From: Ruminiclostridium papyrosolvens DSM 2782
GTDB taxonomy: Bacteria > Bacillota > Clostridia > Acetivibrionales > DSM-1351
Direction: 5' to 3'
DNA length: 64,000 nucleotides
Assembly: GCF_029318685.1 (NCBI RefSeq)
Contig: NZ_CP119677.1
Span: 2,285,001 to 2,349,000, forward strand
In this document: positions 9,549-52,214 of the stretch, in pieces
Layout of the letters: each line of letters opens with the position of its first letter
Numbering within the stretch: position 1 is the stretch's first letter
Program-made: the position numbers and the translations under genes
Notes under the pieces: model-generated
What the model was told of the DNA's origin: nothing
Database searches by the model: none
Seen by the model: only the letters and a program-made list of their open reading frames with translations

Positions 9549-9568
9549 TCTTTTATGAACATAGAGAC

Positions 9569-9615: not shown

Positions 9616-9618
9616 AGT

Positions 9619-38700: not shown

Positions 38701-41619
38701 TCTTCGAGCGACGGAAATTTTATTGAAAGCGATAAAGAAACAAAGACAACTGGCGACAAGCTCGGTATGATTGCGCCTAAGACAGCAGGCCCATACGTTA
38801 TTTTTGTACGGTCAAAGGACGGCAAAGTACTCAGCCAGTCTCACGCTGCTGTTACAGTGCGAGACATGACGCCTGCAGATATTCCTAAAAATGGACTTGA
38901 CTTATGGTTAAAAGCCGATGAGGGAGTGCAAACGGATAGCAGCGGCAACGTAACTGGATGGACAAATATGGGAGGCGTCAATGCCAAGCTTGTACCGGCA
39001 GATGTCACCAGTAGCGACGGTGATGGCCTTGGACAACCAAGCGGTAACCCTACGCTAAAGAAAGATGTATACGACTATGTAGATTTTGCAGCGACGTCAA
39101 GGCCGCTAAAATTTGCAGACTTTAAGAATTATAACGGCAAGACGCAGATGACGATATTCACGCTGCTTAGCCCAACAAACACAGCCAACAGCTCCAGCGA
39201 CCAAAATGGCGTTGTTTACTTCGGCTTGAACGAGACCGACGGAAGTTGGGCTGGCAACGATGGTTGGAGCGGTATCAATCTGGGTGTAGGAACAAACAGA
39301 GTTAACCTTCGCTTTGGTAATGCTAATGGAGACATACAGGGCGGTGGACAAAGTATTTCAGCAACTATCAGTGGTCTAACCAGCGTCCGGGCACAGCTAG
39401 ACGGTTCCAATAGAGACGTTTATGTTAATAGTAACCGTATCGGCGGAGGAACCAATGCTACGGCACTTGCCGGAAACAGATCCGATCTTGGCATAGGTTA
39501 CTCGATGGCTGCTAAAACCCCTTACCGTTTCCTTGGTGGGGTGGCGCAGGTTCTCATCTATGACAGGGTGCTGACAGCTGACGAAATTGCGAAAGTAGAA
39601 GCATATTTTACTAAGTACAAAGCTGGCAATGGTGGAGTTGCAAACGCAGTTGTACCGACTGTCGATAAAACTCTGCTGAACGCCTTGATTAAGAACGTCA
39701 GTAACCAGGACCAAGAGATTTATACAACTGATTCATGGAACGCTTTTGCAAGTGCCTTAAGTGCAGCACAAACTGCTTCCTCGAATACTAAGATTGGGCA
39801 AGAAGCAGCGGATAATTCATATGTCGCTTTGCGTGACGCGTTCAAAGCGCTTACTGTGAAGCCTAGCGGCATTGGAACCGCCCAATACGGTACCCCTACA
39901 CTCGGTGGAGACAACCTCGACCCACTCTGGGCTATGACAGACACGATGCCGAACATGAAGCATCTGACAATGAAGGATGGTCCTACTAGTGGTACTACTA
40001 AAGTGTTGTGGGATGATAAGAACCTGTATGTGCTGGCACGTGTAAAAGACCCTGTGCTCAACACAGGCAGCAGCAACGTGTGGGAGCAGGATTCAATAGA
40101 GATCTTTGTGGATGAGACCAACAGTAAAGCAACTAAATACGGCGATGGTATGGGACAATACCGTATAAACTATAAAAATGTACAAAGTATTAGTCCAGAC
40201 AAATATAAGACCGGTGTTGAGTCTTTTGCCAAAGTAGTGGATGGTGGTTATTACATTGAAACAAAGATTCCATTTAAGATTGTGACTCCTAAGGCTGATC
40301 AAAAAATTGGATTTGATTTGCAGATCAATGACGCGGGAGCAAACAATAACCGTCAAGACGTAATAATGTGGAACGACGAGTCGGGACAATCCTATACTAA
40401 CGGTTCAAAATGGGGTGTGGTTACACTTGTAAAGAAGACAACACCTCCAGCTGGTGGTAATACTACTACACCAACACCTACGACAACTGGCAATGTTGTA
40501 GTTAAAGACGGAGTGGTCACAGCACAGCCAAAGGTTGAAAAAGGCGTGGCAAGCGTAGAAGTTCCTAAGGATGCACTTGATAAGGCATTCGCTACTTCTT
40601 CTACAGCTAAAGTAGTAGTAACAGCTGCACAGGGTGCAAAGGAATATGTTCAGACATTGCCTGTAAGCTCACTTCAGTCTGCAGACAGTAAAAAGAATAT
40701 TGAAATTGTGACTCCTGTAGGAACAGCTGTAATACCTGCGGACGCACTGAAAGATCAGGCTATACAGCAGAAAACAGTTAATATCAGCCTTTCAGCATCT
40801 GATAAGAATCAGATAGAAAACAGACCTGTAATTGATGTTGATCTAAAGGCAGGCGGAAACAGTTTGTCAATCAGCAATCCTTTATCACCGGTTACAGTGT
40901 CAATTGACTACAAGCCTACTGCAGATGAATTAGCAAATGCTGAACATATTGTAGTTTGGTCTATAGACAGTAATGGTAAGGCAACACCTGTAACAAGCGG
41001 AAAATATGATGCAGGTAGTGGTAAGGTAGTATTTGAAGCAACTGAGTCAGGAACGTACGCTGTAACATATGTTGAAAAGAAATTTGAGGATACGTTTAAG
41101 ACTAAATGGGCAGAGGACAAAATAGAAGTACTTGCTTCAAAAGGAATAATAGGAGGAACGTCTGAAACAACATTCTCTCCTCAGAATTCCATTACAAGGG
41201 CAGAATATTTGACTCTTCTTATGAAGGCTTTAGGACTCAAATCTAGTGCAACAGTTGCTTTCGATGATGTTAAACCAGAAAATTATTATTTCAATGCGAT
41301 AGCTACAGCTAAAATGCTTGGAATTACAAATGGAACAGGCGACAATAAGTTTAATCCTGACCAACTAATTTCAAGACAGGATATGATAGTTCTTGCTGAT
41401 AAAGCGTTAACGATTGCTAAAGAAATGGCTAAAAACGGATCATCAATGGATTTGGAAAAATTCTCTGATAATTCCGACATATCAAGCTACGCTGTCGATA
41501 GTGTTGCAAACTTTGTAAAATCCGGTTTGATAAGCGGTGCAAACGGCAATATCAATGCTAAGAGCAATGCAACAAGAGCTGAAGCAGCGGTTCTTATCTA
41601 CAAAATATATAATAAGTAG
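35716..41619 (+). CDS. SLH-anchored multidomain surface protein: beta-helix, LamG-like, CBM9-like
   Basis: 1967 residues. Signal peptide 1 to about 30. Residues about 34-800: right-handed parallel beta-helix starting TIYVATNGDDAAGDGTEVKP, the style of GH141/PL-type polysaccharide-active enzymes (enzymatic class inferred). About 1058-1300: concanavalin/LamG-like domain (GLDLWLKADEGVQ). About 1312-1385: FIVAR-like helical repeat. About 1390-1575: CBM9-like domain (VLWDDKNLYVLARVKDPVL, WEQDSIEIFVDE). A Pro/Thr linker and a beta region follow, then three SLH repeats (about 1793-1967). AAAGGAGG precedes the ATG. The first three quarters are visibly more GC-rich than the SLH end. Confidence 0.88.
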   Translation: MRARKRALSWIVTVIMVITMLPLPQATVMADSATATTIYVATNGDDAAGDGTEVKPYKTIAKAKEVVRTLPKTGGDIVVQIADGFYPNDETLVFDKDDSGSNDCTIRYEAAPGAKPVISGGEMLAKGVWTEAAGLTQAGSLKVYKTTLNRSEKLRAIYVNDKRANMTVSPTITSANRTTTGVPTVSFDGTNNPWAWQNGSEIKGAIVFGTGSGLTLNTKNPQNIEAESLGGARWARPFVCFASAEKAPSASNMSDGTMLRFQMPYAAISQSLGNNTQYNPNNDQVIRNAFEFLDKRGDFYFDQAESTLYYIPLEGEDINTADVVIPILETVVDIRGIPVGDRLNPVANSDDGRVKNITFNGLTFAHTDYKLYELTGTYKYSDKTDPETTSSRGFASVQGCIVNKVYFPSYINWHETFYRGYDIPPAAVMVNAARNIKVLNGEIGFTGFNGVHLENDVKDCEVTGNYIVDTLSSGVVVGHPQHIYENDKKDINESSDAGIKSWSGIDKEKYQAGTEAVPTNINITNNFLYRNCYGFPGANSFTSFYTTNMNVLHNYIYDSTYGAMSIGWGWCEYDGFGYTAQGTNKTGGPYAGTSEDSKARSSEISTTSRNNHINYNRVEECCTLVNDSGAIYSLGRQGDPGDLPDGGTWDTVNNLTSSPVTDPKSNWYPDNWINYTEMNYNFLDPNRTNRPQSSNNWTNGFHPDEGSTFIKMNYNVVQSKLSYAPGRSRLFEFNNWKRKSDMTAIGGYVDGDNDQNGGPRITANNYKSVDRIWPVAGNKIVLDSGLTDEYTHMIPKSLIDDTEYELASNVVMGKGETLNRRGLLKAEDTVWLAPAGTTVFTEGTNMTKAAGNAKTIDAPSVAGEYKLYIVYGDGVTPIATSKYTVYVDTSASAVNVEDGKTYEVSAVRPLKLTLGEGYTYTLDGKSVADGYEISTEGSWTLVLGTQTQPNFKTIKFTTTVSEANKLLQANISVAPGGTVRFAYDLNDATKEIWLSSSSDGNFIESDKETKTTGDKLGMIAPKTAGPYVIFVRSKDGKVLSQSHAAVTVRDMTPADIPKNGLDLWLKADEGVQTDSSGNVTGWTNMGGVNAKLVPADVTSSDGDGLGQPSGNPTLKKDVYDYVDFAATSRPLKFADFKNYNGKTQMTIFTLLSPTNTANSSSDQNGVVYFGLNETDGSWAGNDGWSGINLGVGTNRVNLRFGNANGDIQGGGQSISATISGLTSVRAQLDGSNRDVYVNSNRIGGGTNATALAGNRSDLGIGYSMAAKTPYRFLGGVAQVLIYDRVLTADEIAKVEAYFTKYKAGNGGVANAVVPTVDKTLLNALIKNVSNQDQEIYTTDSWNAFASALSAAQTASSNTKIGQEAADNSYVALRDAFKALTVKPSGIGTAQYGTPTLGGDNLDPLWAMTDTMPNMKHLTMKDGPTSGTTKVLWDDKNLYVLARVKDPVLNTGSSNVWEQDSIEIFVDETNSKATKYGDGMGQYRINYKNVQSISPDKYKTGVESFAKVVDGGYYIETKIPFKIVTPKADQKIGFDLQINDAGANNNRQDVIMWNDESGQSYTNGSKWGVVTLVKKTTPPAGGNTTTPTPTTTGNVVVKDGVVTAQPKVEKGVASVEVPKDALDKAFATSSTAKVVVTAAQGAKEYVQTLPVSSLQSADSKKNIEIVTPVGTAVIPADALKDQAIQQKTVNISLSASDKNQIENRPVIDVDLKAGGNSLSISNPLSPVTVSIDYKPTADELANAEHIVVWSIDSNGKATPVTSGKYDAGSGKVVFEATESGTYAVTYVEKKFEDTFKTKWAEDKIEVLASKGIIGGTSETTFSPQNSITRAEYLTLLMKALGLKSSATVAFDDVKPENYYFNAIATAKMLGITNGTGDNKFNPDQLISRQDMIVLADKALTIAKEMAKNGSSMDLEKFSDNSDISSYAVDSVANFVKSGLISGANGNINAKSNATRAEAAVLIYKIYNK

Positions 41620-41640
41620 TAATTAATTAAAATCTATAAC

Positions 41641-41692
41641 AAAAAGGGGCTGTCTAAGAATCATATCAATGATTTGAGATAGCCCTTTTTTT
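41641..41692 (+). terminator. Terminator of the surface-protein gene
   Basis: AAAAAGGGGCTGTCT...AGAATCAT pairs with ATGATTTGAGATAGCCCTTTTT around loop ATCA, ending in seven T. Confidence 0.92.
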
Positions 41693-41818
41693 GTGCGCTA
41701 ACTACTTATTCCACTTACTCATGCGTGTGAAAAATGATAGTTCTCTATTTTTATTTTAATCTCCTTTTGATTGGAAGCAGGTTGCCTTAAAAGGCATACA
41801 AAATTGGTATCAAATAGC

Positions 41819-41847
41819 TTGACGTAAAAACATATATAATATAATAT
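41819..41847 (+). promoter_or_regulatory. Promoter for SnoaL-like gene
   Basis: TTGACG, 17-bp spacer, TAATAT. The AGCTTGACGTAAAAACATAT context resembles the ACTTGACATATAAACATG repeat promoter near 30890. The rest of 41693-41944 shows nothing else. Confidence 0.65.
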
Positions 41848-41944
41848 CGTTTATAACGAATTATTTCGAAATCGGAATTGATAAACAGGAATTTGCCGGA
41901 CAACATTGAACTGTAGATAACTTATAAGAAAGGACTATAAATTA

Positions 41945-42331
41945 ATGAATGACTTAATAAAAGAATTGATAGACGCTGCCGACAAGGCAATAAGAGAGGA
42001 ACGGTTTGATGATTTAATGAATTTTTACACTGAGGATGCAGTTCTTGTTATCAAACCCGGTCTGGAAGTTCAGGGCAAAGAAGCTATTAAGAAAGCTTTT
42101 ATAAAAATTGCCGGGTACTTTAAAAATAGTATAATACCTACACAAGGTAAAATGCTTATGATTGAGGCTGGCGATACGGTTTTGGTTATGTCTCAAACTC
42201 TACTGGAAGCGGACAATAAAAGCGAATCGGAATTTAGTATGAACCGAAGAGCAACTTATATTTATAGAAATATTGATGGAAAATGGTTGTGCGCAATTGA
42301 CAATTCATATGGAACATCATTACTTGACTAA
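41945..42331 (+). CDS. SnoaL-like / NTF2-fold protein
   Basis: 128 residues. Cone-shaped NTF2-like fold predicted from [31 protein letters not shown] at the N-terminus and [13 protein letters not shown] at the end, typical of the DUF4440/SnoaL group. These proteins bind small molecules or act as simple enzymes; no specific role can be given. Ribosome site AAGAAAGGACT. Stand-alone gene with its own promoter. Confidence 0.8.
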
Positions 42332-42350
42332 AATATTAACAGCGCAGTAG

Positions 42351-42396
42351 TGTGATAATGTTAGAAACTTGATATTTAAACGTTGGAGCATATTGA
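42351..42396 (+). promoter_or_regulatory. Promoter-side repeat, diverged copy, before kinase gene
   Basis: GTTAGAAACTTGATATTTAAACG corresponds to the repeat GATTGAAACTTGACATATAAAC at 30881. TTGATA with ATTGAA 17 bp later is a weak promoter; the repeat identity is clearer than promoter function. Confidence 0.5.
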
Positions 42397-42474
42397 ATAA
42401 TTTGTAAAGATTTGCTTCGGATTAAGAATATTTAGTCTTCTATTAGAAAGTATATCAAAAGGACGGGTATTGCT

Positions 42475-42963
42475 TTGAAAGTTCTGATTTTTGGGATAGT
42501 TGCAAGTGGAAAGACAACTCTTGCAAGAGAATTATCTTTGAGATACAACATGAAATTTTATGAAGGTGATTGCATCGCATGGGGATTTCCAGGAGAACAA
42601 CGATATAAACGTACAGAAACAGAACAAACAAATATTATTTTAGACATTGATAAAAAAGGTGATTGGATTATTGAGGGTACATACAGAGAAAGTCAAAAAT
42701 GCTTGTTTGATATGGCAGAAACCATTATATTTTTGGATACTTCTCTAAGTATAAGAAAACTTAGAATTATCACAAGATTTATCAAACAAATAATTGGTAT
42801 AGAAAAGTGCAATTATAAGCCTACATTTGAAATGCTTAGATTAATGTTTAAATGGACTGATGATTTCGAGAAAAATAGAAGAAAGTATGAGGAGATGTTG
42901 CTCTTGCATAAGCATAAATTGGTTTGGGTTAAATCTAAAAAAGAATTACAGGAAAAGTTATAG
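42475..42963 (+). CDS. P-loop AAA/adenylate-kinase-like protein
   Basis: 162 residues. Walker A FGIVASGKTTLARELS (about 5-20) and the strand DWIIEGTYRES plus FLDTSLSIRKLRIITR place it with the small nucleotide-kinase-like proteins often annotated as topology modulators or shikimate-kinase-like. Substrate unknown. TTG start with AAAGGACGG upstream. Followed by a terminator repeat. Confidence 0.8.
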   Translation: MKVLIFGIVASGKTTLARELSLRYNMKFYEGDCIAWGFPGEQRYKRTETEQTNIILDIDKKGDWIIEGTYRESQKCLFDMAETIIFLDTSLSIRKLRIITRFIKQIIGIEKCNYKPTFEMLRLMFKWTDDFEKNRRKYEEMLLLHKHKLVWVKSKKELQEKL

Positions 42964-42998
42964 TTTAATTTATATTATATATATAGGAATACTCTATT

Positions 42999-43031
42999 AC
43001 CGCATATTCAGTAAATGAACTGCGGTTTTTT
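42999..43031 (+). repeat. Dispersed terminator-like repeat, copy 5
   Basis: ACCGCATATTCAGTAAATGA, identical over 20 bases to the copy at 32221, followed by ACTGCGGT and TTTTTT. The downstream flank TCC...GGACGCAATATAAATA matches copy 4. Confidence 0.8.
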
Positions 43032-43074
43032 CGTGTCCATCTTTGGACGCAATATAAATAAACTTTTTTTGCTA

Positions 43075-43103
43075 TTGACATATAAATAACATATATGTAA
43101 AAT
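43075..43103 (+). promoter_or_regulatory. Promoter upstream of decayed gene and secreted protein
   Basis: TTGACA, 17-bp spacer, TAAAAT. The spacer TATAAATAACATATATG contains the palindromic CATATATG. Confidence 0.65.
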
Positions 43104-43140
43104 ATTAACAAATAAACTTGTCTAATAAGGAGCTGCTATC

Positions 43141-43337
43141 ACTATTATAAAGAGACTACCAGATACAGAATTTGAAATTTGGACGAGCGATCCACCTATA
43201 GCTACATCAGTGGTAATGGAGTAATTGGTAAATATCAGTTAGTAATTAAAGAAGAGGGGAATTATTATATTTTTGTTATTGGTGCTGCATCCGATTATTC
43301 AGCATTAAAAGTAGGTATTATCAACATTATAAATTAA
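43141..43337 (+). pseudogene. Frameshifted remnant related to the next secreted protein
   Basis: The ribosome site AAGGAGC near 43127 is followed by no usable start codon. Two adjoining frames read KRLPDTEFEIWTSDPP (ending at 43224) and ISGNGVIGKYQLVIKEEG then NYYIFVIGAASDYS to a stop at 43335. The latter parallels the C-terminus of the intact neighbour (NYYFVGVTNASSDS), suggesting a decayed tandem duplicate. The frames overlap around 43190-43224, consistent with a single-base frameshift. Confidence 0.45.
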
Positions 43338-43358
43338 GTCTTTAACTGGAGGTATAAC

Positions 43359-43868
43359 ATGAATAGGTCAAAAAAATTTTTTACAAGTGTTCTTTCTATG
43401 ATTATGGTAATGGTAATGGGGTTATCTTTTTCTGTGAGTGCTGTGAGCGCTGCAACTAATGCGAGTGTACACGATATTTATTATACTGTTTATAATGAAA
43501 AAGGTGAAATCGTTAAAGAAGGAATAATTCCGGCAATAGGTGCAAGATATTCTTGGGGAGGTTCCATTACGCTGGACAATGGTTGGTACACAGCCTTTAT
43601 GCAGTCAGGGCCTAAGGGTTTTTACGTTACAAAAGACACATCCATGTCGTTTTCTTATTCTTTAAACAGAAGTGCTACCATCGAATATGACTTTTATCAA
43701 AACACTACTTCAGACACAACATACCCCAATACTTGGAAGACTGGGACAAAGAAAGCATCCAGCGCTACTTTAACTTATACCGCTGACAAAACAAATTATT
43801 ATTTTGTTGGCGTTACTAACGCTTCCTCAGATAGTATAACAATTTCGAATGTTTCGTTTGTGTTTTAA
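43359..43868 (+). CDS. Small secreted beta-rich protein, unknown
   Basis: 169 residues. Signal peptide about 1-31 (ends SAVSAAT, typical cleavage). The mature part is rich in aromatic/Thr/Ser beta strands (YYTVYNEKGEIVKEGIIPA, GGSITLDNGWYTAFM) and looks like a compact extracellular beta-sandwich. No family recognised. Good site TGGAGG before ATG. The adjacent remnant 43141-43337 seems related. Confidence 0.75.
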   Translation: MNRSKKFFTSVLSMIMVMVMGLSFSVSAVSAATNASVHDIYYTVYNEKGEIVKEGIIPAIGARYSWGGSITLDNGWYTAFMQSGPKGFYVTKDTSMSFSYSLNRSATIEYDFYQNTTSDTTYPNTWKTGTKKASSATLTYTADKTNYYFVGVTNASSDSITISNVSFVF

Positions 43869-44211
43869 CACTTAAGAGACATTAATTATTTTCTCGGTTG
43901 TGGCTTCAAACAATATTTCTGGCTGTCGATGCTAATCGGATGTAGCATTTATTATAAAAGAAAGAAAAAATATTTTACGGAAGGCAGATAGGAAAAAGTA
44001 CAGACACCAAAAAGAACGAACTTATTTTGGGTTATTTAAAATAGGCTCGTTTTTTTATTGTTTATTTTCTTCATGAACAATAAAGAAGATGCTCTTCCCA
44101 ATATTAAGAGCTTACGATTTAGTAATTAAGTTCTGCAGTACTATTATTTGTAAAAGAAAATAAATAAAATGTAAAAAATATGCTGATTTTGGCTTAAATT
44201 GAAATAATTCA
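43869..44211 (+). other. Intergenic region with probable terminator
   Basis: AT-rich, no gene. AAGAACGAACTTATTTT pairs imperfectly with AAAATAGGCTCGTT and is followed by TTTTTATT at about 44021-44060, likely the terminator of the secreted-protein gene. Confidence 0.5.
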
Positions 44212-44240
44212 TTGACAAATGCCAGACAGTAGCATAATAT
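44212..44240 (+). promoter_or_regulatory. Consensus promoter of the YcaO/RiPP locus
   Basis: TTGACA (44212-44217), 17-bp spacer, TAATAT (44235-44240). It leaves an untranslated leader of about 350 nt before ycaO with no gene in it, unusual enough to hint at leader regulation. Confidence 0.8.
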
Positions 44241-44561
44241 GTAAATGTATGGATAGGAAGTTAATGGTAAGAAATGCAATGTGTTTTTATTTGATAACTG
44301 AATATTTATAACAAAACCTAACTTTTTTTAAATCAATTTACGAAGACTGTTCTCTCTGTATCTATGGAGATACAATGGAATTAAGTATTTCATTCTGATA
44401 CACAAAATCACCTCTACATTTCGATATTGACCTATGTGATCCGATGCTGAATTCTTTCTTCATGGATAAAATATTTACACATGTATCCTCCATTCAGCCC
44501 CAACTCTTTTAGATTACAATCAAAACTAAGAAAACAAAAAAGACTGGCAGATAGTTATTAT

Positions 44562-44600
44562 GGAAAGGAGAGTATGCATTAGCATACAAAATGAAGATTG
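44562..44600 (+). promoter_or_regulatory. Ribosome site separated from ycaO start by a hairpin
   Basis: GGAAAGGAG (44562-44570) is the only strong ribosome site, but ycaO's first possible start, TTG 44598, is 27 nt away. Between them is a perfect hairpin GTATGC-ATTA-GCATAC (44572-44587). Folding it would leave roughly 11 unpaired bases, a workable spacing. The ATG inside the hairpin opens a two-codon frame (ATG CAT TAG). Confidence 0.45.
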
Positions 44601-46478
44601 ATTAGTTTACAACAGAAAATGCATTTTAAAGAAATATCTCCAATTGAAACAGTTAATAAGTTAAAGGGAATACTTAAGGCATGTGAAATAGAGGTTGATG
44701 AAACCTGGCTCCAAAAAAGCAGTTTAAATACATATACAGTTAGAATTGAGATTAAGGGAACAGGTATAGGAACAAATGGTAAGGGCATATCGAAGGATTT
44801 TGCACTTGCAAGCGGGTACGCTGAGTTTTTTGAGCGCTTTCAAAATAATATGCTCGGTACAAATGTTATTGTATCAGATAAAGTGGATGAGCATGGGGGG
44901 GCTTTAGATGGAAAATGCTTAACTGCAGAAGAATTGATAGCTAATAATAATAGCTTCATGCGACTGTATTTTGAAAACCGCAATATGGGAAATGCTTCTT
45001 TTCAGGAGAAAGTGCAAAACTTCAAAAGTGTTCATGTATTAGAGCATTTATTAAATAATGAAGATACCTATTATTCATTACCTTTTTATAATTTTAAAGA
45101 TGGTAAAGTTGAATTTCTACCAATAAACAGTTATGTGTTAAATTATGGAAGTAACGGAATGTGTGCCGGTAATACATCAGAGGAAGCAATTGTTCAAGGA
45201 TTATCTGAAATAATAGAACGCTATATACAAAAACGTCTATTTACAGAAAAACCGGCATTACCAGATATACCCGAAGAGTATATTAAGCAATTTCCGTACA
45301 TTTATGAAATGTTTTTGTTGTTGAAAGAAAACTCAAGTTATAAAGTAATGTTGAAAGATTGTTCGTTTGGCGGCAAATATCCTGTGGCAGCGCTAATAAT
45401 CATTGAAAAAAATACAGGTAAATATGGAATTAAGTTAGGATGTCATCCTGACTATGGAATTGCTATGGAACGGGCTTTTACCGAAGCCACGCAGGGACAG
45501 GATATTTTTGAATATGTAAATCGTAGTGTTATAGATTTCTTTAATACTAATGTAGAGGATGAAACTAATATATGTAACAGTTACAAAATAGGTGTTGGAC
45601 AATTTCCATATCAACTATTCGGAAGAACCCCTTCATTTGAATTTGCTCCTGTAAAAGATGTTTCAACTATGACAAATGCGGAAATTGCAAACAGTTGGAT
45701 TAATGAATTTATTAATGATGGTTATGATGTTTTGGTTCGGAATGTATCACATTTTAATTTCCCTTCATTTCATATTATAATACCCGGAATGTCAGAGATG
45801 AGAAATACAAGTGATACATTATTCAGGGTTTATAATACTAAACATTTAGTTTCAGGCTTACTTTATAATGCAGATAAAATTACACTTGATAATACAAAAT
45901 ATATTATTGGAACAATGGACTATTTCTCCAATGCACAATTAGAGAATATAGTAAGCAATTTTTATAGTTTTTTGGAAGATGTTAAAATTCCTTTTGAAGA
46001 ATTAGGAGAAGGATGTCCATACCTGACAGCAATGTGCTATATAGTAAATAAAGACTATTTAAATGCATTAAGAGAGATTACTTATATTGAAAATAGAATC
46101 ACAATGAGAAAAATAGATGCAAATGTATTGGAGTGGATTACCTCAATAAAATACTACCTCAGTGCAATGTGTGAATTAAAAGATCATAAAAATTCATTAC
46201 AATACCTAGAATCAATGTTTGATAAAGAATACATTCTTCGATTAGATTCTTTATTTGAGGATCCGGCATCAGTAATTATAAAACAGTATCCATCCAGTGC
46301 TCAGTTAGAAAATCTAAAGGAAAATGAAAACTATAAGAGATTTGAACATGCATTTCATCAATACATCTGTGCTCAGAAGAAGAATCCGATAAATCAGGAG
46401 GATATAGCAAAATTAATTGAATTTAATTCAGATAAAGTAACTTATGACGAAAATCCTTCGAAGAATGTGATTGATTAG
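44598..46478 (+). CDS. YcaO-domain peptide-modifying enzyme, stand-alone
   Basis: 626 residues. YcaO enzymes use ATP to activate peptide backbone amides, making azolines, thioamides or amidines in RiPPs. ATP-site motifs: GISKDFALASGYAEFFERF (about 63-81; Glu76, Glu79), CAGNTSEEAIVQGLSEIIERY (about 188-208) and GIAMERAFTEATQGQ (about 288-302). The C-terminal 150 residues are helical and TPR-like, replacing the PxPxP tail of azoline-forming YcaOs. There is no E1/Ocin-ThiF or TfuA partner beside it. TTG start uncertain (ATG 44619 possible). Followed by a precursor-like peptide and an M50 protease. Confidence 0.88.
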   Translation: MISLQQKMHFKEISPIETVNKLKGILKACEIEVDETWLQKSSLNTYTVRIEIKGTGIGTNGKGISKDFALASGYAEFFERFQNNMLGTNVIVSDKVDEHGGALDGKCLTAEELIANNNSFMRLYFENRNMGNASFQEKVQNFKSVHVLEHLLNNEDTYYSLPFYNFKDGKVEFLPINSYVLNYGSNGMCAGNTSEEAIVQGLSEIIERYIQKRLFTEKPALPDIPEEYIKQFPYIYEMFLLLKENSSYKVMLKDCSFGGKYPVAALIIIEKNTGKYGIKLGCHPDYGIAMERAFTEATQGQDIFEYVNRSVIDFFNTNVEDETNICNSYKIGVGQFPYQLFGRTPSFEFAPVKDVSTMTNAEIANSWINEFINDGYDVLVRNVSHFNFPSFHIIIPGMSEMRNTSDTLFRVYNTKHLVSGLLYNADKITLDNTKYIIGTMDYFSNAQLENIVSNFYSFLEDVKIPFEELGEGCPYLTAMCYIVNKDYLNALREITYIENRITMRKIDANVLEWITSIKYYLSAMCELKDHKNSLQYLESMFDKEYILRLDSLFEDPASVIIKQYPSSAQLENLKENENYKRFEHAFHQYICAQKKNPINQEDIAKLIEFNSDKVTYDENPSKNVID

Positions 46479-46572
46479 CTAATTTTCAATATTCTTTCTT
46501 TTCACATATTTTTTATAAAGTGTTTCGTGAAAAGAAATTATATAATCTAATAACAGAAAGGAGGATAAAATT

Positions 46573-46731
46573 ATGAATACTCTAGTTGAAGGTCTATTAA
46601 CTGATGACGAGCTTCAGAAAATACATGAAGATCATGTAGAGAAAGTAAAATCAGAAGACGTAAACAGCTTAGGGGCAGCTCTGGGTGGATCTACTGTGAC
46701 ATTTGCAGCAGGAGGCGCTGCATTCCTATAA
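46573..46731 (+). CDS. Candidate RiPP precursor peptide (52 aa)
   Basis: A short gene with an excellent ribosome site (GAAAGGAGGATAAAATT before ATG). Residues 1-30 are charged and helical (TDDELQKIHEDHVEKVKSED), like a leader. Residues 31-52 are Gly/Ala-rich with Ser and Thr (SLGAALGGSTVTF, then AAGGAAFL) and contain no Cys. A GG at 38-39 could be a processing site. It sits directly between ycaO and the M50 protease with a stem-loop after it. Being a substrate is inferred from size, composition and position; the modification is unknown. Confidence 0.78.
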   Translation: MNTLVEGLLTDDELQKIHEDHVEKVKSEDVNSLGAALGGSTVTFAAGGAAFL

Positions 46732-46758
46732 CTATTGTTGAATTAAAATAGTTATGTA

Positions 46759-46792
46759 AATAGGTAACATATTATTTGATATGTTACCTATT
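46759..46792 (+). terminator. Stem-loop after precursor gene (partial terminator / mRNA stabiliser)
   Basis: A 14-bp perfect stem AATAGGTAACATAT / ATATGTTACCTATT with six-base loop but no proper T-run. In RiPP operons such elements lower expression of downstream enzymes relative to the precursor and protect its mRNA; here that is inference. Confidence 0.6.
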
Positions 46793-46850
46793 AATATACC
46801 TAGAAATCGTAATTTATTTTACACTTAAATGGTAATGAAAAGGGTATAAT

Positions 46851-47651
46851 ATGAAATCATATATGAAAAACGATATAACTGTTATTAAACAGGATGAAGA
46901 AGTTGTTGTAGTATATAATCGTAATAATAGAAATACTTATAAAATTGGACATAAAGAATTTGAGATACTGAATTTATTAAACAAAGCTAATACAATTGAT
47001 GATATCTATGACAGTAATTTTAGTAAAGACTATATTATTCATCTGATTAATACCTTCAGTGAAGTAGGACTCATTAATGAAAAAAGCATAAAAAAAAGAT
47101 TTCGTAACTGGAAATTAATTGATGGGATAGAAGTATTTAAGTCTAAAAAATTATTTATAAAGATACTTTACTATATTATTCTTTTTCTGCCTATACCATT
47201 ATTATTTATAGGAATTTCATTGGTTAAGTTTAACTTTAATAGTGTGGTTTTTTCTTTTAATTTTATAAATATAATATGTGCTTTAATATTTGCATTAATA
47301 TCAACTTTATTACATGAAATTTCTCATGGAATAGTAGCTGCTATTAATAATGTTTATGTAATTGAAATAGGCTTAAAATTTAACCATTTTATACCAACCA
47401 TGTATACTTCTCTATATGGAATGGAATATATAAATAATAAGAGAAAAATACTAGTCTATATTGCAGGGATATTGTCAGATATTGGTTTGATAGGAATTTC
47501 ACTAATTTTATATCGCGCATTTCCATCCTTAGATAATATATTATTCTTATATATTTTTATAGAAATACTTTCTGTTATTTCAAATCTATGTATATTCATG
47601 CAGACTGATGGATATAAAATATTTAAGGTATTATTAGGTGAAGATATATAA
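46851..47651 (+). CDS. Membrane M50-family metalloprotease with PqqD/RRE-like N-terminus
   Basis: 266 residues. Residues about 1-85 resemble a PqqD-like RiPP recognition element: a strand pair (ITVIKQDEEVVVVYN), then helices with FEILNLLNKANTIDDIYD and a final wing FSEVGLINE. From about 105 onward it is membrane: five or six helices with the zinc motif LLHEISHGIVAA (HEISH 155-159) and a late Asp in QTDGYKIF, the site-2-protease arrangement. It likely cleaves or helps export the modified peptide; the N-terminal domain would bind the leader. Located 119 nt after the precursor. Confidence 0.82.
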   Translation: MKSYMKNDITVIKQDEEVVVVYNRNNRNTYKIGHKEFEILNLLNKANTIDDIYDSNFSKDYIIHLINTFSEVGLINEKSIKKRFRNWKLIDGIEVFKSKKLFIKILYYIILFLPIPLLFIGISLVKFNFNSVVFSFNFINIICALIFALISTLLHEISHGIVAAINNVYVIEIGLKFNHFIPTMYTSLYGMEYINNKRKILVYIAGILSDIGLIGISLILYRAFPSLDNILFLYIFIEILSVISNLCIFMQTDGYKIFKVLLGEDI

Positions 47652-47676
47652 ACCTTTTATATCTTCTGTTGTTTTC

Positions 47677-47712
47677 TATTTCACAATGTTTACATGTGAA
47701 CATTGTGAAATA
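47677..47712. promoter_or_regulatory. 36-nt palindrome after the M50 gene
   Basis: Arms TATTTCACAATGTT and AACATTGTGAAATA pair perfectly around TACATGTG, itself containing ACATGT. It has no T-run, so it may be an operator for the following FlxA-like gene or an mRNA 3' end structure rather than a canonical terminator. Confidence 0.55.
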
Positions 47713-47783
47713 CTATAAAACATTTCTGGAAAATTACGATATAAATAGTGTAAATATAATTAGTATTTTCGGAGGAACTTATT

Positions 47784-48536
47784 ATGAGTGTTTCAGCAGT
47801 ATCTACCAGTTCAAATATTACTTATGCACCTATGGGTTTTGATAATAGCATAAAACTATTGGAGAAACAAAAGATGCAATTGCAGGAGCAAATTCAAAAA
47901 GTCAATGAGAGTAAAATGGATCCTAAAATGAAACAGGAAAAAGTCAAGGAATTAACGGAGCAAATTACTGATATAGAATCACAGATTAGGCAAAAGCGGA
48001 TGGAAAAAATCAAGCCGGATTATGGAAAAGTGGATTCAAAAAATAATAATTATAATGAAGATAATAAAGCCCAATATGAAAAATCTGATGTAAGTATAAA
48101 CTCAAAAAATATGATTTCTGCAGTGACTGGGTATTCAGATTTAAAAACTATGGGAAAAGTAAGAACTGATCTGAAAAATCAGCTAAGAATTGCATCTCAT
48201 AGTGATAAGAGTCCTGAAGCAGGTCAAGGTATTGCAAAGAAGATTGAAAAACTTGAAGGTGACATACATAAAAAATCGGAAAAAATAAATAGTGATTTAA
48301 GAAAAGCGGCTAAGGACGGAGAAAAAACAGGAAAACAAGAAACGAAAAATGATATTAAAGAAGATAGTAAAGATAAAGAAAATCCAGTGTCGATTATTAC
48401 AGGCGATGCAGAATCTATTCAAGATGAGAACAGAGGTATTATATCTTCGAATGACGTCAAAAGTTCTGAAAAAGTCATAAAGAATGGAAAGGAAACAGTT
48501 CCACCCCAAGGAAGAGCTGTTGATATACGAATTTAA
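47784..48536 (+). CDS. FlxA-like coiled-coil protein
   Basis: 250 residues, no signal peptide or membrane helix. N-terminus MSVSAVSTSSNITYAP, then a Gln/Lys/Glu-rich coiled coil (about 22-75) resembling FlxA proteins (KQKMQLQEQIQKVNESKMD). The rest is low-complexity, charged and probably disordered. FlxA-like proteins are linked to flagellar regulation in enterics, but in clostridia the role is unclear. Site GGAGGAACTT. Not clearly part of the RiPP operon. Confidence 0.7.
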   Translation: MSVSAVSTSSNITYAPMGFDNSIKLLEKQKMQLQEQIQKVNESKMDPKMKQEKVKELTEQITDIESQIRQKRMEKIKPDYGKVDSKNNNYNEDNKAQYEKSDVSINSKNMISAVTGYSDLKTMGKVRTDLKNQLRIASHSDKSPEAGQGIAKKIEKLEGDIHKKSEKINSDLRKAAKDGEKTGKQETKNDIKEDSKDKENPVSIITGDAESIQDENRGIISSNDVKSSEKVIKNGKETVPPQGRAVDIRI

Positions 48537-48659
48537 GAATTAGAAGATATTAGTAATCCAAAGAAGTACTTCATTGCAAGGTGCTTTTTTGGGTTAACAA
48601 ACTATTCTGATTTCAAAAACCTGATGGTTTAGCTCTAAAGTGATACGAGGAGGTATACA

Positions 48660-49073
48660 ATGAGTTTATTTATCAATAGTGTGGGAGCTGGAAAAACATA
48701 TACTTCTACTGCAGCACTGGATGATAAGAATAATAATGAAAATACCCGGGTGAAGCAAAAAAAGAAACAAATTCTGTCAGTAAGAGAAGGTAATTATTAC
48801 TGTACCTACATAGTTGATGAAAAAGGACAGATGATACTGTTAAAAAGGATTCCTGCAGATAAAGTAAAAAAACAAAATGGCTTGGAAATGGAACGTGAAA
48901 CTGATGATGTAAGGCCCTGTGATTATAATGCTGTAAAAAATGCCAGAACTGCTTTTGAATGTAGACAACAGATGGATATGGAAATCTCACATAAAAAGAA
49001 TTTGAAAGAAGTAATGACTATTTTAGAGGACTACGCAGGTATCACTGAAGATCCAAATAAAAACTATTATTAA
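48660..49073 (+). CDS. Hypothetical basic protein
   Basis: 137 residues, soluble, Lys-rich N-terminal third (KQKKKQILSVREGNYYCTYI) and a helical C-terminus. The start MSLFINSVGAGKT resembles the beginning of the preceding gene product in style but no family is recognised. Strong site CGAGGAGG. A weak hairpin with TTTTTT at 48563-48590 separates it from the FlxA-like gene. Confidence 0.7.
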   Translation: MSLFINSVGAGKTYTSTAALDDKNNNENTRVKQKKKQILSVREGNYYCTYIVDEKGQMILLKRIPADKVKKQNGLEMERETDDVRPCDYNAVKNARTAFECRQQMDMEISHKKNLKEVMTILEDYAGITEDPNKNYY

Positions 49074-49121
49074 TATGTTGTATACTGAATAGTAATCATA
49101 TACAAATTTGGAGTGATTTTA

Positions 49122-49949
49122 ATGAAGCTTTCAACATTTTATTTCAGCGGTACCGGTAATACAGAATGGGCCGTCAGAGAGTTTGAGCGTATAATTGCTG
49201 AAGGCGGGCATGATGTAGACTCAATTTCAATAGACGGAGTTGATGCCCGGAAGCCCTCTTTTCTTGTAGAAATAGTCCGAAACTCAGATTTTATCGGTTT
49301 TGCAAATCCCATATATGGTGGTAACATACCTCCGGTTATGAGGGTATTTATTAGCAATGTAATAAAAGCGTTGGCAGATGAAGCAGAGTGGGCAAAACCG
49401 GTGTATATTATCAATACTTTTGCTTATATAAATGGCTTTGGTCCTTTTTGTGCAGGGAAGCTTCTAAAAAATACGGGATTCAGGTTGATTTCCTATGTAA
49501 ATATACAAATCTGCAACAATATTTCTACTCCAAACTTGAAAGTAAAAAAAATTACACAAGAAAAACTAAATAAAAGAAAGCTATTAGCAGTAGAAGAATT
49601 ACAAAAAGCAGCAGGTATGCTTTTTGCAGGTAAACCTTATATAACCGGTAGAGGTCTTTATTTAATACCAAACATTCTGATAAGGAAAATATCCAAAAAG
49701 GCAATTGCAGACAACTATAAAGTCTTTTGTGTTGAGAAGAATTCTTGTGAGAGATGTATGTTATGTGTTGATAAGTGCCCCACAAAAAGCATCGAGTATA
49801 AAGATGATAGCTTCAGGTTTTTACCAACTTGCACTGCTTGTATGCGTTGCTATAATAATTGTCCAACCTATTCTATTCTTTTTAATGGGAAATTTGCTGA
49901 CCCAAACATATATGAGCGATATCGGGGGCCTGATGTTGTTCAAAATTAG
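49122..49949 (+). CDS. EFR1-type flavodoxin-ferredoxin fusion protein
   Basis: 275 residues. N-terminal flavodoxin-like FMN site (FYFSGTGNTEWAVREF, about 5-20), middle FANPIYGGNIPPVM, and C-terminal two 4Fe-4S motifs CERCMLCVDKCPTKSIEY and CTACMRCYNNCPTYSI. This architecture is the EFR1 family of ferrodoxins in clostridia, electron carriers of unknown partner. ATG 49122 is preferred over upstream GTG 49113 because TTGGAG precedes it by about 8 nt. Confidence 0.88.
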   Translation: MKLSTFYFSGTGNTEWAVREFERIIAEGGHDVDSISIDGVDARKPSFLVEIVRNSDFIGFANPIYGGNIPPVMRVFISNVIKALADEAEWAKPVYIINTFAYINGFGPFCAGKLLKNTGFRLISYVNIQICNNISTPNLKVKKITQEKLNKRKLLAVEELQKAAGMLFAGKPYITGRGLYLIPNILIRKISKKAIADNYKVFCVEKNSCERCMLCVDKCPTKSIEYKDDSFRFLPTCTACMRCYNNCPTYSILFNGKFADPNIYERYRGPDVVQN

Positions 49950-50120
49950 CGTATATCCTGTCTAGACAGTTCTCAAGATTTTGAAAAATGAATAGTAGAG
50001 TATAGATTAAGACTTTAAAAATAAATTTTTCCTATGTAAAAAATCAGGGCCAAATTAACATTAAGTTATGTAAACTCATATTATATTAATAAATTCATCA
50101 TTTGTGGAGGCATTATATAT

Positions 50121-50897
50121 ATGAATTACAAATATTCTTATAATAAAGATAGAATTGATAATAGAGATTTACTTTTTTCCAGATCAGTATCACCACATCC
50201 TGAAATAATACTGCCTAAATTAGTAGACTTAAGAGGGAAATGTCCACCTGTATATAACCAAGGGAACTTAGGATCGTGTACTGCAAATGCCGGATGCACT
50301 TGTAGAGCTATGCTGTTGCAAGATAATCAAATTCAGTTATCAAGAATGTTTTTATATTATGAAGAAAGAAAATTAGAAGGAAAAACCAATAAGGATGATG
50401 GGGCAAGTCTTAGAGATACATGCAAATCAATCTATAAGAAAGGCGTTTGTGAAGAAAAATATATGCCATATAATCCGGAAAATTATAAGTTGCCACCTTC
50501 AAAACTTGCAAAAATAAATGCACAACAATACAGGATTATTGCATATAAATCATTAAGTTCCTTAGACGAAATCAAGCAAAACTTGGCTTTCAGGCAGCAA
50601 CCGGTATTATTAGGAATGAATGTATATGAAAGTTTTGAATCGGAGGCAGTAACTAAAACAGGGATTATGCCAATGCCGCGCAAGAACGAAAAAAAGCTGG
50701 GAGCTCATGCTGTTTTAATAGTTGGTTATAAGGATATAGGTAAGAACCATGGTATGCCCGGCAGAAACAAGCATCAACAAGGTTATCTTTTAGTGAGAAA
50801 TTCATGGGGAGATAAATGGGGTGATAAAGGATATTTTTATATGCCGTTTGATTATGTGATACCTGATTATACTTTTGATTATTGGATTATGGAATAA
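50121..50897 (+). CDS. C1 (papain) family cysteine protease without propeptide
   Basis: 258 residues. Catalytic triad positions are all visible: Cys in YNQGNLGSCTANAGC (about 50-64), His in GAHAVLIVGYKD, Asn in LVRNSWGDKWGDKGYF. It has no signal peptide and only a 40-residue N-terminal extension, so it probably works inside the cell. Related clostridial proteins of this kind are uncharacterised. Site GTGGAGG. Lies upstream of an ICMT-like gene, separated by 54 nt. Confidence 0.88.
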   Translation: MNYKYSYNKDRIDNRDLLFSRSVSPHPEIILPKLVDLRGKCPPVYNQGNLGSCTANAGCTCRAMLLQDNQIQLSRMFLYYEERKLEGKTNKDDGASLRDTCKSIYKKGVCEEKYMPYNPENYKLPPSKLAKINAQQYRIIAYKSLSSLDEIKQNLAFRQQPVLLGMNVYESFESEAVTKTGIMPMPRKNEKKLGAHAVLIVGYKDIGKNHGMPGRNKHQQGYLLVRNSWGDKWGDKGYFYMPFDYVIPDYTFDYWIME

Positions 50898-50951
50898 GAT
50901 AAATGCGAAACTATTGTAAATATATGCTTTTACCTTGGAGGTGATATTTTA

Positions 50952-51626
50952 GTGGATAAACGAGCAGTTATCTATATTGTTAGGCTGGTGGCACAGAGAG
51001 TAATAGGTTTCTTTCTGTTTCTATTAGGAGCGTCGTGGATGCTTAGTGTCAGAGATATTGTTTATTTTGGATTGTACATTTTGATAGCGATTATCTCTGG
51101 AATTATAATGTATAAAGCAAATTCTGAGACAATTCGGGAAAGAGGAAAAATTAATACAAATTCTCCATTTTGGGATAAGGTGTTACTAACTATTTACTGG
51201 ATGCTTGCGTACTTCGTTATATATTTTATTGCGGGGATAGGGTATAAATCAGGGGGGTCGGTAGATTATTTATTTTGTATAGGAATATTTCTTCTAATTT
51301 TTTCGACAGCTATTACTTTAAAGGCTATGATTGTTAACACTTATTTAGAATCAACTGCAAGATTACAAACCGATAGAAGACAGAAAGTCTGTAAGGATGG
51401 ACCATATTCGATAATAAGACACCCTACATATTCAGCAGTACTAATTTGGTGTGTTGCCATATCTTTGATATTTCCAGCTATATCTGTGACAATTACAGCA
51501 TCGGCTATAGCAAGTATAATCATTATTCGAACATATTTAGAAGATACTATGTTGAAAAGAGGCTTAGACGGATATAAAACGTATACGCAGGATGTGAAAT
51601 ATCGGTTGATTCCTTTCATATGGTAA
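50952..51626 (+). CDS. Isoprenylcysteine/phospholipid methyltransferase-like membrane protein
   Basis: 224 residues with five or six membrane helices. The C-terminal signature KDGPYSIIRHPTYSAVLIW and the last EDTMLKRGLDGYKTYTQDVKYR match the ICMT/PEMT fold, SAM-dependent methyltransferases acting in the membrane. Substrate unknown; bacterial members may act on lipids or amines. GTG start with TTGGAGGTGAT. Confidence 0.85.
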   Translation: MDKRAVIYIVRLVAQRVIGFFLFLLGASWMLSVRDIVYFGLYILIAIISGIIMYKANSETIRERGKINTNSPFWDKVLLTIYWMLAYFVIYFIAGIGYKSGGSVDYLFCIGIFLLIFSTAITLKAMIVNTYLESTARLQTDRRQKVCKDGPYSIIRHPTYSAVLIWCVAISLIFPAISVTITASAIASIIIIRTYLEDTMLKRGLDGYKTYTQDVKYRLIPFIW

Positions 51627-51695
51627 CAAGTAAATTTCTATAATATTGAGATTATAGGAGGACAGTATATTTATAACTTTTGAGGTTAAAAGAAA

Positions 51696-52115
51696 ATGTT
51701 TATTGAAAAGTCGTGTGGTGTAATAGTTTACAGGATACAGATTGAAAATATTGAATTCTTAGCAGTAAAAAGTAAAGCTAATGGTCATTGGGGTTTTCCA
51801 AAAGGCCATATGGAAAATCATGAGAGCGAGGAACAAACAGCTAAGAGGGAAGTTTTTGAAGAAACAGGATTAAGTGTTGATTTGCTTCGCGGATTTAGAG
51901 CAAAGACACAATACATGTTGGATGACGGTATTTCCAAGGAAGTTATATATTTTATTGGGACATCTTCAGAAAAGAATGTAAGTATACAGGCAGATGAAAT
52001 TCAAGAGTACAGGTGGTTAAAGTACAGCAAAATGAAGGAATTATTGAGTTTTGATAACTCAAAGCAAATACTAAAAGAGGCTCATGACTTTCTCTCTTTA
52101 TTAAATTATAGCTGA
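51696..52115 (+). CDS. Nudix hydrolase, Ap4A-hydrolase-like
   Basis: 139 residues. The Nudix box is complete: GHMENHESEEQTAKREVFEE with TGL after it (about 32-54), preceded by WGFPKG, which is typical of diadenosine tetraphosphate hydrolases. The N-terminus EKSCGVIVYR fits the same group. Probably cleaves dinucleoside polyphosphates. Ends in a strong terminator. Confidence 0.9.
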   Translation: MFIEKSCGVIVYRIQIENIEFLAVKSKANGHWGFPKGHMENHESEEQTAKREVFEETGLSVDLLRGFRAKTQYMLDDGISKEVIYFIGTSSEKNVSIQADEIQEYRWLKYSKMKELLSFDNSKQILKEAHDFLSLLNYS

Positions 52116-52122
52116 AATTGTG

Positions 52123-52158
52123 AAAAAAGTGCTTCAACCTTAATTGAAACACTTTTTT
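52123..52158. terminator. Bidirectional-looking terminator
   Basis: AAAAAAGTGCTTCAA and TTGAAACACTTTTTT pair around CCTTAA. It lies between the Nudix gene (+) and the secreted-protein gene (-). Confidence 0.9.
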
Positions 52159-52214
52159 CTTAGCCTTCATTTATTAGGATACAGATATTTCTTTAATAAT
52201 TAATAAATTTTCTT

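What the first reader, a model, noticed from the sequence alone, without database searches (positions are those of the whole stretch)
44212..47651. Candidate minimal RiPP locus: YcaO, cysteine-free precursor, membrane M50 protease
Seen: a consensus promoter drives ycaO, then a 52-codon gene with the best ribosome site in the region, then an M50 protease gene, on one strand. The peptide has a charged helical leader half and a Gly/Ala/Ser/Thr tail (LGAALGG, STVTFAAGGAAFL) without Cys. Known: YcaO enzymes modify RiPP backbones and precursors are usually next to them. Inference: a small RiPP system whose product is not thiazole-based, since the core lacks Cys. I know of no characterised system with just these three parts.
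Basis: partly seen in the sequence, partly recalled or inferred. Interest (0 to 1): 0.88.

Follow-up and report, generated by a model that had tools for sequence, protein, structure and literature searches.

The report
Three-gene YcaO peptide-natural-product locus
This stretch holds a very small gene set that probably makes a modified, membrane-active peptide: a short precursor, one backbone-modifying enzyme related to an E. coli enzyme that alters the ribosome, and one membrane protease that carries a precursor-recognition fold; the same arrangement was found in two distantly related bacteria, but nothing has been made or tested yet.

Summary
The genes are real: ycaO (44619-46478), a 52-codon Cys-free peptide (46573-46731) and an M50 protease (46851-47651), one strand. 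The promoter claim is at chance level. The minimal-RiPP reading gains independent support. (1) Two distant contigs, L039 and L040 (YcaO 48% and 44% identical), have the same order: YcaO, peptide(s), M50. (2) The peptides share a leader block (GLLTDDEL / GLMTDEEL / GLLNAEEI / SLITREEM); leave-one-out, the window peptide ranks 1st of 8,167 short ORFs. (3) The predicted M50 structure is an RRE fold joined to a site-2-protease fold. (4) A hairpin follows the last peptide gene in all three loci. The YcaO is of the E. coli type by sequence and full-length predicted fold, not the azoline type. E. coli YcaO was shown in 2026 to thioamidate ribosomal protein uL16, so I favour thioamidation over oxazoline; the chemistry is inferred. 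Nearest described: daptides (same kind of protease) and RiPP-associated E. coli-group YcaOs, noted in one sentence in print. Against: another close homologue (L041, 45%) has a different layout; 41 related YcaOs look stand-alone; the three loci are not firmly one clade; only three examples are known.

The parts
44619..46478 (+). ycaO gene, 619 aa (alternative start TTG 44598): E. coli-type YcaO with C-terminal helical (TPR-like) domain; probable backbone-modifying enzyme
   Evidence: PF02624 162.9 bits; NF040716 218 bits, under its cut-off of 700; AlphaFold2 model pLDDT 87.2 matches 4q85 over 547 residues, Z 42.8; residues aligned to E. coli E75, E78, R79, N187, E191, E199, E202, R203, R286, E290 identical, S16 is Thr and S184 is Cys
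46573..46731 (+). precursor peptide gene, 52 aa, no Cys; hydrophobic Gly/Ala/Ser/Thr tail
   Evidence: strong ribosome site; rank 1 of 8,167 short ORFs in leave-one-out leader scoring
46591..46614 (+). conserved leader block GLLTDDEL, proposed RRE-binding site
   Evidence: 0 of 400 shuffles reach the four-peptide block score
46851..47651 (+). membrane M50 protease gene, 266 aa: RRE fold joined to site-2 protease fold
   Evidence: NF041824 8.1e-12 but 45 of 300 bits; model pLDDT 80.5; folds
46854..47084 (+). residues 2-78 of the M50 protein: RiPP recognition element (RRE/PqqD-like) fold
   Evidence: three strands then three helices; TbiB1 Z 8.4 over 76 residues, lasso B1 Z 8.4 over 75, TigE Z 9.7 over 84
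47127..47648 (+). residues 93-266 of the M50 protein: site-2 protease domain with HEISH (47313-47327) and Asp253 (47607-47609)
   Evidence: SpoIVFB Z 11.4, RseP entries Z 9.6-11.3; H155, E156, H159, D253 invariant in nine sequences
46759..46792 (+). 15-bp hairpin between precursor and protease genes; proposed attenuator or stabiliser
   Evidence: 119-nt gap folds at -25.9 kcal/mol, z -3.1; the same gap in L039 z -4.5, in L040 z -4.7

Best explanation
A minimal RiPP locus. The ribosome makes a 52-residue precursor. Its leader block GLLTDDEL is bound by the RRE at the N-terminus of the membrane protease (inferred from fold). The E. coli-type YcaO uses ATP to activate one or more backbone amides in the C-terminal core (enzyme class shown by sequence and fold; chemistry inferred: most likely a thioamide from free sulfide in this presumed anaerobe, less likely a Ser/Thr oxazoline). 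The site-2 protease then cuts off the leader at the membrane and frees a short hydrophobic peptide, perhaps also helping it out of the cell as has been proposed for the epipeptide protease EpeP (inferred). The hairpin behind the precursor gene probably keeps precursor output above enzyme output (inferred). The product is probably a membrane-active bacteriocin or a signal (weakest step).
For: Same gene order YcaO - peptide(s) - M50 in two distant contigs, L039 and L040; leader block shared by all four peptides, 0 of 400 shuffles, leave-one-out ranks 1 (window), 1 and 11 (L039), 2 (L040) of about 8,167; RRE + site-2 protease fold; catalytic residues kept in M50 and ATP-site residues in YcaO; YcaO fold = E. 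coli YcaO over the full length, Z 42.8, then methanogen YcaOs at Z 25-26, above the heterocyclases and other RiPP YcaOs at 18-23; E. coli YcaO thioamidates uL16, in vitro with sulfide (PMC13063428, abstract, passages and section 30); post-precursor hairpin in 3 of 3 loci; accessory distribution: related YcaO in 0 of 10 congeners at E <= 1e-10 and in 7 of 391 class genomes, itself included, at E <= 1e-20.
Against: No product, mass or activity is known. No dedicated sulfur donor: no TfuA match in the whole genome. No ThiF-type partner at the locus. The RRE sits on the protease, not on the YcaO, so YcaO's substrate recognition is unexplained. Core residues are not conserved, so no modification site can be named. 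No exporter was seen beside the window locus. L041, about as close as L040, has another layout. 41 related YcaOs look stand-alone. In the careful tree only window + L039 group (92/88); L040 falls in an unresolved fork. YcaO pI of 5.04 fits neither the uL16 type (4.4) nor a neutral RiPP type clearly. Foldseek alone gave no match at E <= 0.001 for the protease model.
Confidence: 0.75

Rival explanations
1. Same RiPP logic, but the YcaO makes Ser/Thr oxazolines (or another backbone heterocycle) rather than a thioamide.
For: The window core has Ser and Thr (STVTF), and Ser/Thr occur in all four peptides; azoline formation is the classical YcaO reaction (recalled; also stated in PMC8442711, passages); in the ThiF-containing relative clusters L041 and L074 one precursor each ends in Cys.
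Against: No ThiF/E1-exemplar match at the window, L039 or L040 locus; protein ends NVID, no PxPxP tail; nearest fold is E. coli YcaO, then methanogen YcaOs, then heterocyclases; Ser/Thr positions are not conserved.
Confidence: 0.25
2. The YcaO is a uL16-thioamidating (ribosome-modifying) enzyme and the peptide and protease are unrelated neighbours.
For: Best NCBIfam model is the E. coli YcaO equivalog; full-length fold match including the C-terminal helical domain; 41 related YcaOs look stand-alone, 19 of them with thioredoxin and thioredoxin-reductase genes in the locus; acidic pI 5.04.
Against: Gene order kept with two distant contigs; leader block shared; RRE fold on the adjacent protease; not found in any of 10 congeners, unlike a housekeeping function; only 218 of the 700 bits needed for the equivalog.
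Confidence: 0.12
3. The peptide is an unmodified substrate or signal of the membrane protease (pheromone-like), with YcaO acting elsewhere.
For: M50 proteases process peptide signals (recalled); hydrophobic tail ending AAFL; no exporter seen beside the window locus.
Against: YcaO is the first gene of all three loci and the peptide genes directly follow it; the M50 carries a RiPP recognition fold.
Confidence: 0.1

Closest known systems
Daptides (PMC10036551; PMC12338566, also held as PMC12670281)
   Same: RRE fused N-terminally to a site-2 protease removes the leader; some clusters have a YcaO; hydrophobic small-residue cores; relatives of this very YcaO occur in daptide-like clusters with a class-III aminotransferase (L074, L080)
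   Different: No C-terminal Thr, no aminotransferase or dehydrogenase match at the locus, no methyltransferase or DUF-RRE seen; leader block GLLTDDEL rather than ELExMEAP; the two daptide YcaOs described have a PxPxP tail and need a C-terminal amine, this one lacks the tail
E. coli YcaO group / uL16 thioamidation (PMC13063428)
   Same: Full-length fold including the C-terminal helical domain, ATP-site residues; the paper says a few non-acidic members of the group sit in RiPP contexts
   Different: Dedicated small precursor and RRE-protease beside it; not found in congeners; 21% identical in the structural alignment
Epipeptides (EpeX with EpeP; PMC10885120)
   Same: Membrane M50 protease that cuts and is thought to export the product; weak match to NF058609 (30 of 225 bits)
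   Different: No radical-SAM exemplar match at the locus
YcaO-TfuA thioamidated RiPPs
   Same: Proposed backbone thioamide on a RiPP core
   Different: No TfuA match in the whole genome
Linear azol(in)e peptides (SLS-like)
   Same: YcaO on a RiPP precursor
   Different: No Cys in the peptide, no ThiF-like partner at the locus, no PxPxP tail; the same genome has a separate SLS-like cluster

Membership tests
RiPP gene cluster (general) | small precursor gene next to modifying enzyme, with conserved leader and variable core | tested here: met
   order kept in window, L039, L040; leader block 0 of 400 shuffles, leave-one-out ranks 1, 1/11, 2; cores differ
RiPP gene cluster (general) | RRE domain for leader binding | tested here: met
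   predicted fold of M50 residues 2-78 matches RRE structures; binding itself not tested
RiPP gene cluster (general) | post-translationally modified product | not testable with these tools
   needs mass spectrometry
Daptides | C-terminal Thr in the core | tested here: not met
   peptides end in Leu (window), Leu and Val (L039), Leu (L040)
Daptides | oxidative decarboxylase, aminotransferase and methyltransferase in the cluster | tested here: not met
   no match to daptide-type aminotransferase or SDR exemplars among called genes of window 36001-56000, L039, L040; methyltransferase and iron-type dehydrogenase had no exemplar and were judged from the gene lists only; other places in the genome were not searched
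Daptides | RRE-site-2 protease (DapP) | tested here: inconclusive
   same architecture but 45 of 300 bits for NF041824 and placed apart from daptide proteases at 87/91, under the program's mark
E. coli YcaO group | full-length YcaO plus TPR-like domain | tested here: met
   4q85 Z 42.8 over 547 residues
E. coli YcaO group, uL16 type | very acidic pI (4.4 in E. coli) | tested here: inconclusive
   pI 5.04; range 4.67-8.66 over 96 rows, window included; no clean split by context
E. coli YcaO group, uL16 type | no small ORF nearby | tested here: not met
   criterion from PMC13063428
E. coli YcaO group, uL16 type | thioamidates uL16 | not testable with these tools
   needs experiment
Linear azol(in)e peptides | PxPxP tail of YcaO and E1/ocin-ThiF partner | tested here: not met
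   C-terminus ...NPSKNVID; no ThiF-exemplar match in window 36001-56000
YcaO-TfuA thioamidated RiPPs | TfuA partner | tested here: not met
   0 of 1, own whole genome, E <= 0.001
Epipeptides | radical-SAM epimerase beside precursor | tested here: not met
   no rSAM-exemplar match in window 36001-56000

The most novel reading that the evidence does not exclude
A branch of the E. coli-type YcaO family, whose best-characterised role is to thioamidate a ribosomal protein, has been captured as the sole modifying enzyme of a three-gene RiPP class, making thioamides without TfuA or ThiF and relying on an RRE carried by the membrane protease.
Probability: 0.3. Interest if true: 0.75.

Novelty: new variant of a known kind. 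Interest (0 to 1): 0.52.

Why it matters
If right, it is one of the smallest YcaO RiPP systems and links two recent themes: ribosomal-protein thioamidation by E. coli YcaO and the RRE-site-2 proteases of daptides. Three genes are easy to express together, so the chemistry of RiPP-associated E. coli-type YcaOs, and how such an enzyme finds its substrate without its own RRE, becomes directly testable. The precursor leader block gives a search handle for more members.

Tried and rejected
Promoter as evidence: rejected, at chance level. RNA element in 43860-47860: no Rfam match at E <= 1. Phage or plasmid carriage: no M50 match in phages or plasmids; YcaO in plasmids: 26 records, best coverage 64% (YcaO was not searched in phages); viral contigs: none for the M50, 2 YcaO loci whose flanks show no M50 match. 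Defence: no PADLOC match; PHROGs: only a weak hit (0.0034) to a family of unknown function, on the M50 N-terminus. Whole-system homologues in the class sample: none; peptide hits at E 0.0185-0.09 in 10 other genomes taken as chance and not followed. YcaO profile in a phylum sample: 1 of 398, itself, at E <= 1e-60. RimO as explanation: RimO-family matches in 11 of 11 genus genomes, over the family cut-off in 10 of 11, although the 10 congeners have no related YcaO, so RimO does not depend on it here. pI as discriminator: no clean split. Leave-one-out for the L040 peptide was topped by an unrelated-looking ORF at window 26101. L094 (Bifidobacterium) and L043 peptides as extra family members: L094 ranked 49-196, L043 ranked 6-15 of about 8,167; not claimed. 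The first genome-contig scan with the single protein found nothing; the second, with alignment A2, kept 80 of 194 relatives, so members beyond rank 80 were not seen, nor any that lack both search patterns. Trees: YcaO ORFs of 480 aa or less were left out; some records are in it twice (identical rows). The careful YcaO tree used 24 rows chosen by me from the 97. Plain Foldseek was not run for the YcaO model, only the second-look aligner.
Full report
What is there. On the + strand lie ycaO (ATG 44619 to 46478, 619 aa), a 52-codon gene (46573-46731) and an M50 protease gene (46851-47651, 266 aa). The peptide MNTLVEGLLTDDELQKIHEDHVEKVKSEDVNSLGAALGGSTVTFAAGGAAFL has no Cys. Its ribosome site is AGGAGG eight bases before ATG; ycaO shows no such site before ATG 44619 and the M50 gene a moderate one. 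I saw nothing next to it that looks like part of the system: a secreted-looking protein of unknown function before it, a FlxA-like protein after it.

The genome. The window is G000:C1:2285001-2349000 of a 5.03-Mb single-contig genome. From genome sizes and grouping of its relatives I take it for a Ruminiclostridium-like clostridium; this is inference, no call names it. The system looks accessory: a related YcaO (E <= 1e-10) occurs in 0 of 10 congeners and in 4 of 58 genomes of the order, window included; in the class sample in 7 of 391, window included, at E <= 1e-20; in the phylum sample with a profile at E <= 1e-60 only in the window, 1 of 398. The precursor has no convincing match besides itself in 391 class genomes (10 others at E 0.0185-0.09).

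The same system elsewhere. A scan of the species-genome collection with an alignment of five YcaOs found 194 relatives, of which the best 80 were kept. Two of the three closest have the same architecture. L039 (contig of a MAG called Endomicrobium sp., 48%): YcaO 6977-8797, peptides 8856-9017 (53 aa) and 9074-9259 (61 aa), M50 9418-10407, then two small membrane-like proteins, an ABC ATPase (Pfam) and a membrane protein. L040 (Tissierellia MAG, 44%): YcaO 6983-8815, peptide 8835-8975 (46 aa), M50 9027-9809, then a binding-protein-dependent ABC system that reads as an importer. The third, L041 (45%), differs: its precursor-like ORF, M50 and ThiF genes lie about 4-7 kb before its YcaO. Of 94 YcaO loci with more than 600 nt read downstream, 15 have a 35-85-codon ATG ORF with strong ribosome site within 700 nt; window, L039 and L040 are the three in which an M50 gene directly follows the peptide.

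The peptides are related in their leaders. An ungapped block GLLTDDEL / GLLNAEEI / GLMTDEEL / SLITREEM scores 131 against a shuffle mean of 65 and maximum of 93 (0 of 400); with window, L040 and one L039 peptide: 0 of 400 with the 61-aa one, 3 and 4 of 400 with the 53-aa one. Leave-one-out over about 8,167 short ORFs of the window and the loci: window peptide rank 1; L039 peptides ranks 1 and 11; L040 peptide rank 2, behind an ORF at window 26101. The cores differ but are hydrophobic, rich in small residues (less so in L040), without Cys, and end in Leu or Val; the 53-aa L039 peptide has one Cys in its leader. In all three loci a hairpin fills the gap between the last peptide gene and the M50 gene: z -3.1, -4.5, -4.7 (the L039 gap was cut from 158 to 141 nt to fit the tool).

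The protease carries the recognition fold. AlphaFold2 on seven sequences gave pLDDT 80.5. Residues 2-78 have the three-strand, three-helix order of an RRE and align to TbiB1 (Z 8.4, 76 residues, 2.5 A), the lasso B1 protein (Z 8.4), a sactipeptide enzyme (Z 7.1-7.2) and TigE (Z 9.7, 84 residues); residues 93-266 align to SpoIVFB (Z 11.4) and RseP entries (Z 9.6-11.3) (the tool warns that Z under about 8 can mean a common arrangement only). Foldseek alone gave no E <= 0.001, best 0.08 for SpoIVFB and 0.13 for TbiB1 with probability 0.99-1.00. His155, Glu156, His159 and Asp253 are invariant in nine sequences, window included. Daptide clusters were found through such an RRE N-terminally fused to a site-2 protease (PMC10036551, passages). 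In a 17-row protease tree those linked to E. coli-type YcaOs (window, L039, L040, L041, L080, one of two in L074), plus L154 near which I saw no YcaO, fall on one side at 87/91, apart from daptide-like and radical-SAM-linked proteases; branches are long and the split is below the program's mark. In the class sample related proteases occur in 32 of 391 genomes at E <= 1e-8, window included; of eight stretches fetched, five have a radical-SAM gene next to or near the protease and one a class-III aminotransferase.

The YcaO is of the E. coli kind. NCBIfam's E. coli YcaO model gives 218 bits (cut-off 700) against 43.6 for the azoline SagD model (cut-off 219); the general YcaO domain model passes its cut-off (125 of 76). 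phmmer finds 4q84 at 9.6e-41. The AlphaFold2 model (pLDDT 87.2) aligns to 4q85 over 547 residues, Z 42.8, including the C-terminal helical domain; methanogen YcaOs follow at 25-26, then cyanobactin-type heterocyclases, MusD and McbD at 18-23. Residues at E. coli positions E75, E78, R79, N187, E191, E199, E202, R203, R286 and E290 are identical; S16 is Thr and S184 is Cys (their role as ATP/Mg ligands is recalled). E. coli YcaO was shown in 2026 to thioamidate uL16; the in-vitro reaction used a non-physiological sulfide level; the authors add that a few non-acidic members of its group sit in RiPP contexts (PMC13063428: abstract, passages, section 30). That sentence is the nearest statement in print that I found; its supplement could not be opened, so these loci may be listed there.

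Tree context. In a 97-row tree window, L039 and L040 group at SH-aLRT 91 inside a 51-row clade (99) that also holds daptide-like clusters (L074, L080) and L041 with ThiF, GG-leader peptide clusters (L042, L083), L043, a Bifidobacterium (L094) and 41 YcaOs of mostly uncultured Clostridia without such neighbours, 19 of them with thioredoxin and thioredoxin-reductase genes in the locus. Of these 41, one (L061) has under 2 kb read downstream and six under 2 kb upstream. In a careful 24-row tree only window + L039 is supported (92/88); L040 and the stand-alone group lie in an unresolved fork (94/94). So the three loci may not be one clade, and gain or loss of the RiPP link cannot be ordered.

Mechanism. 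Shown: gene order, leader conservation, predicted folds, kept catalytic residues. Inferred: RRE binds the leader block; YcaO modifies the core; the site-2 protease frees it. Chemistry, my odds: thioamide about 0.4, oxazoline about 0.25, other about 0.35. For thioamide: nearest characterised relatives make thioamides, no E1 partner seen, no PxPxP, no Cys, host presumed anaerobic. Against: no TfuA match in the genome and no named sulfur donor. Release: EpeP, an M50 protease, is thought to cut and export an epipeptide (PMC10885120, passages), which would excuse the missing exporter; L039 has an ABC ATPase gene downstream.

Novelty. Paper searches for YcaO with M50, with daptide, with site-2 protease, with RimO and RiPP, with Nif11 and Clostridi-, with thioamide and Bacillota, with RRE, M50 and precursor peptide, and with uL16 thioamidation listed, by titles and abstract starts, no description of a YcaO-peptide-M50 system; I opened passages of six of the listed papers. 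The library lacks most subscription journals. I rate it a new variant of a known kind.

Noticed in passing
L015:6068-11289 (G000:C1 about 4261000-4266300): The same genome has a second YcaO in an SLS-like azoline cluster: two identical 41-aa Cys-rich precursors, nitroreductase (SagB-like), weak ThiF (SagC-like), YcaO (SagD-like), CAAX-protease-like membrane proteins and ABC genes.
   Followed up: partly
L010, L024, L096, L100, L103, L104, L106, L108, L111, L112, L115, L116, L117: A separate E. coli-type YcaO clade (17 rows, SH-aLRT 100) has a Met/Ser/His/Gln-repeat peptide gene (MHSMQSMHSM...) in the locus in 13 of 17 rows; two record pairs are duplicates, and matching of such low-complexity peptides is loose. 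A possible YcaO substrate; not studied.
   Followed up: no
L046, L053, L058 and 16 other loci: Stand-alone YcaOs of uncultured Clostridia with thioredoxin reductase and thioredoxin genes in the locus (19 of 41 rows of their clade); candidates for ribosomal-protein thioamidation in Bacillota.
   Followed up: no
L074:3995-15597, L080, L041: Clusters that combine an E. coli-type YcaO with a ThiF protein and an M50 protease, two of them (L074, L080) with a daptide-like class-III aminotransferase; in L074 a second M50 groups apart from the daptide type, and one precursor each in L041 and L074 ends in Cys.
   Followed up: partly
L042:8898-14207 and L083:7488-13157: Same YcaO clade beside long GG-leader peptides: 12 related ORFs in L042 (no Pfam match for the first) and two in L083, the latter with a C39-peptidase ABC transporter.
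   Followed up: no
L087, L088, L091, L095, L097, L101: Two E. coli-type YcaO genes per locus; 4 of the 6 loci also have GG-leader-type peptides.
   Followed up: no
L013:834-12804 (G004, same genus): A daptide-like cluster without YcaO: two peptides ending in Ser-Thr and Ala-Thr, class-III aminotransferase, methyltransferase, SDR, RRE-M50-like protein, ABC gene.
   Followed up: partly
window 44572-44587: A strong ribosome site followed at once by a small hairpin and a two-codon frame ahead of ycaO; the region folds no better than shuffles (z 0.02).
   Followed up: partly
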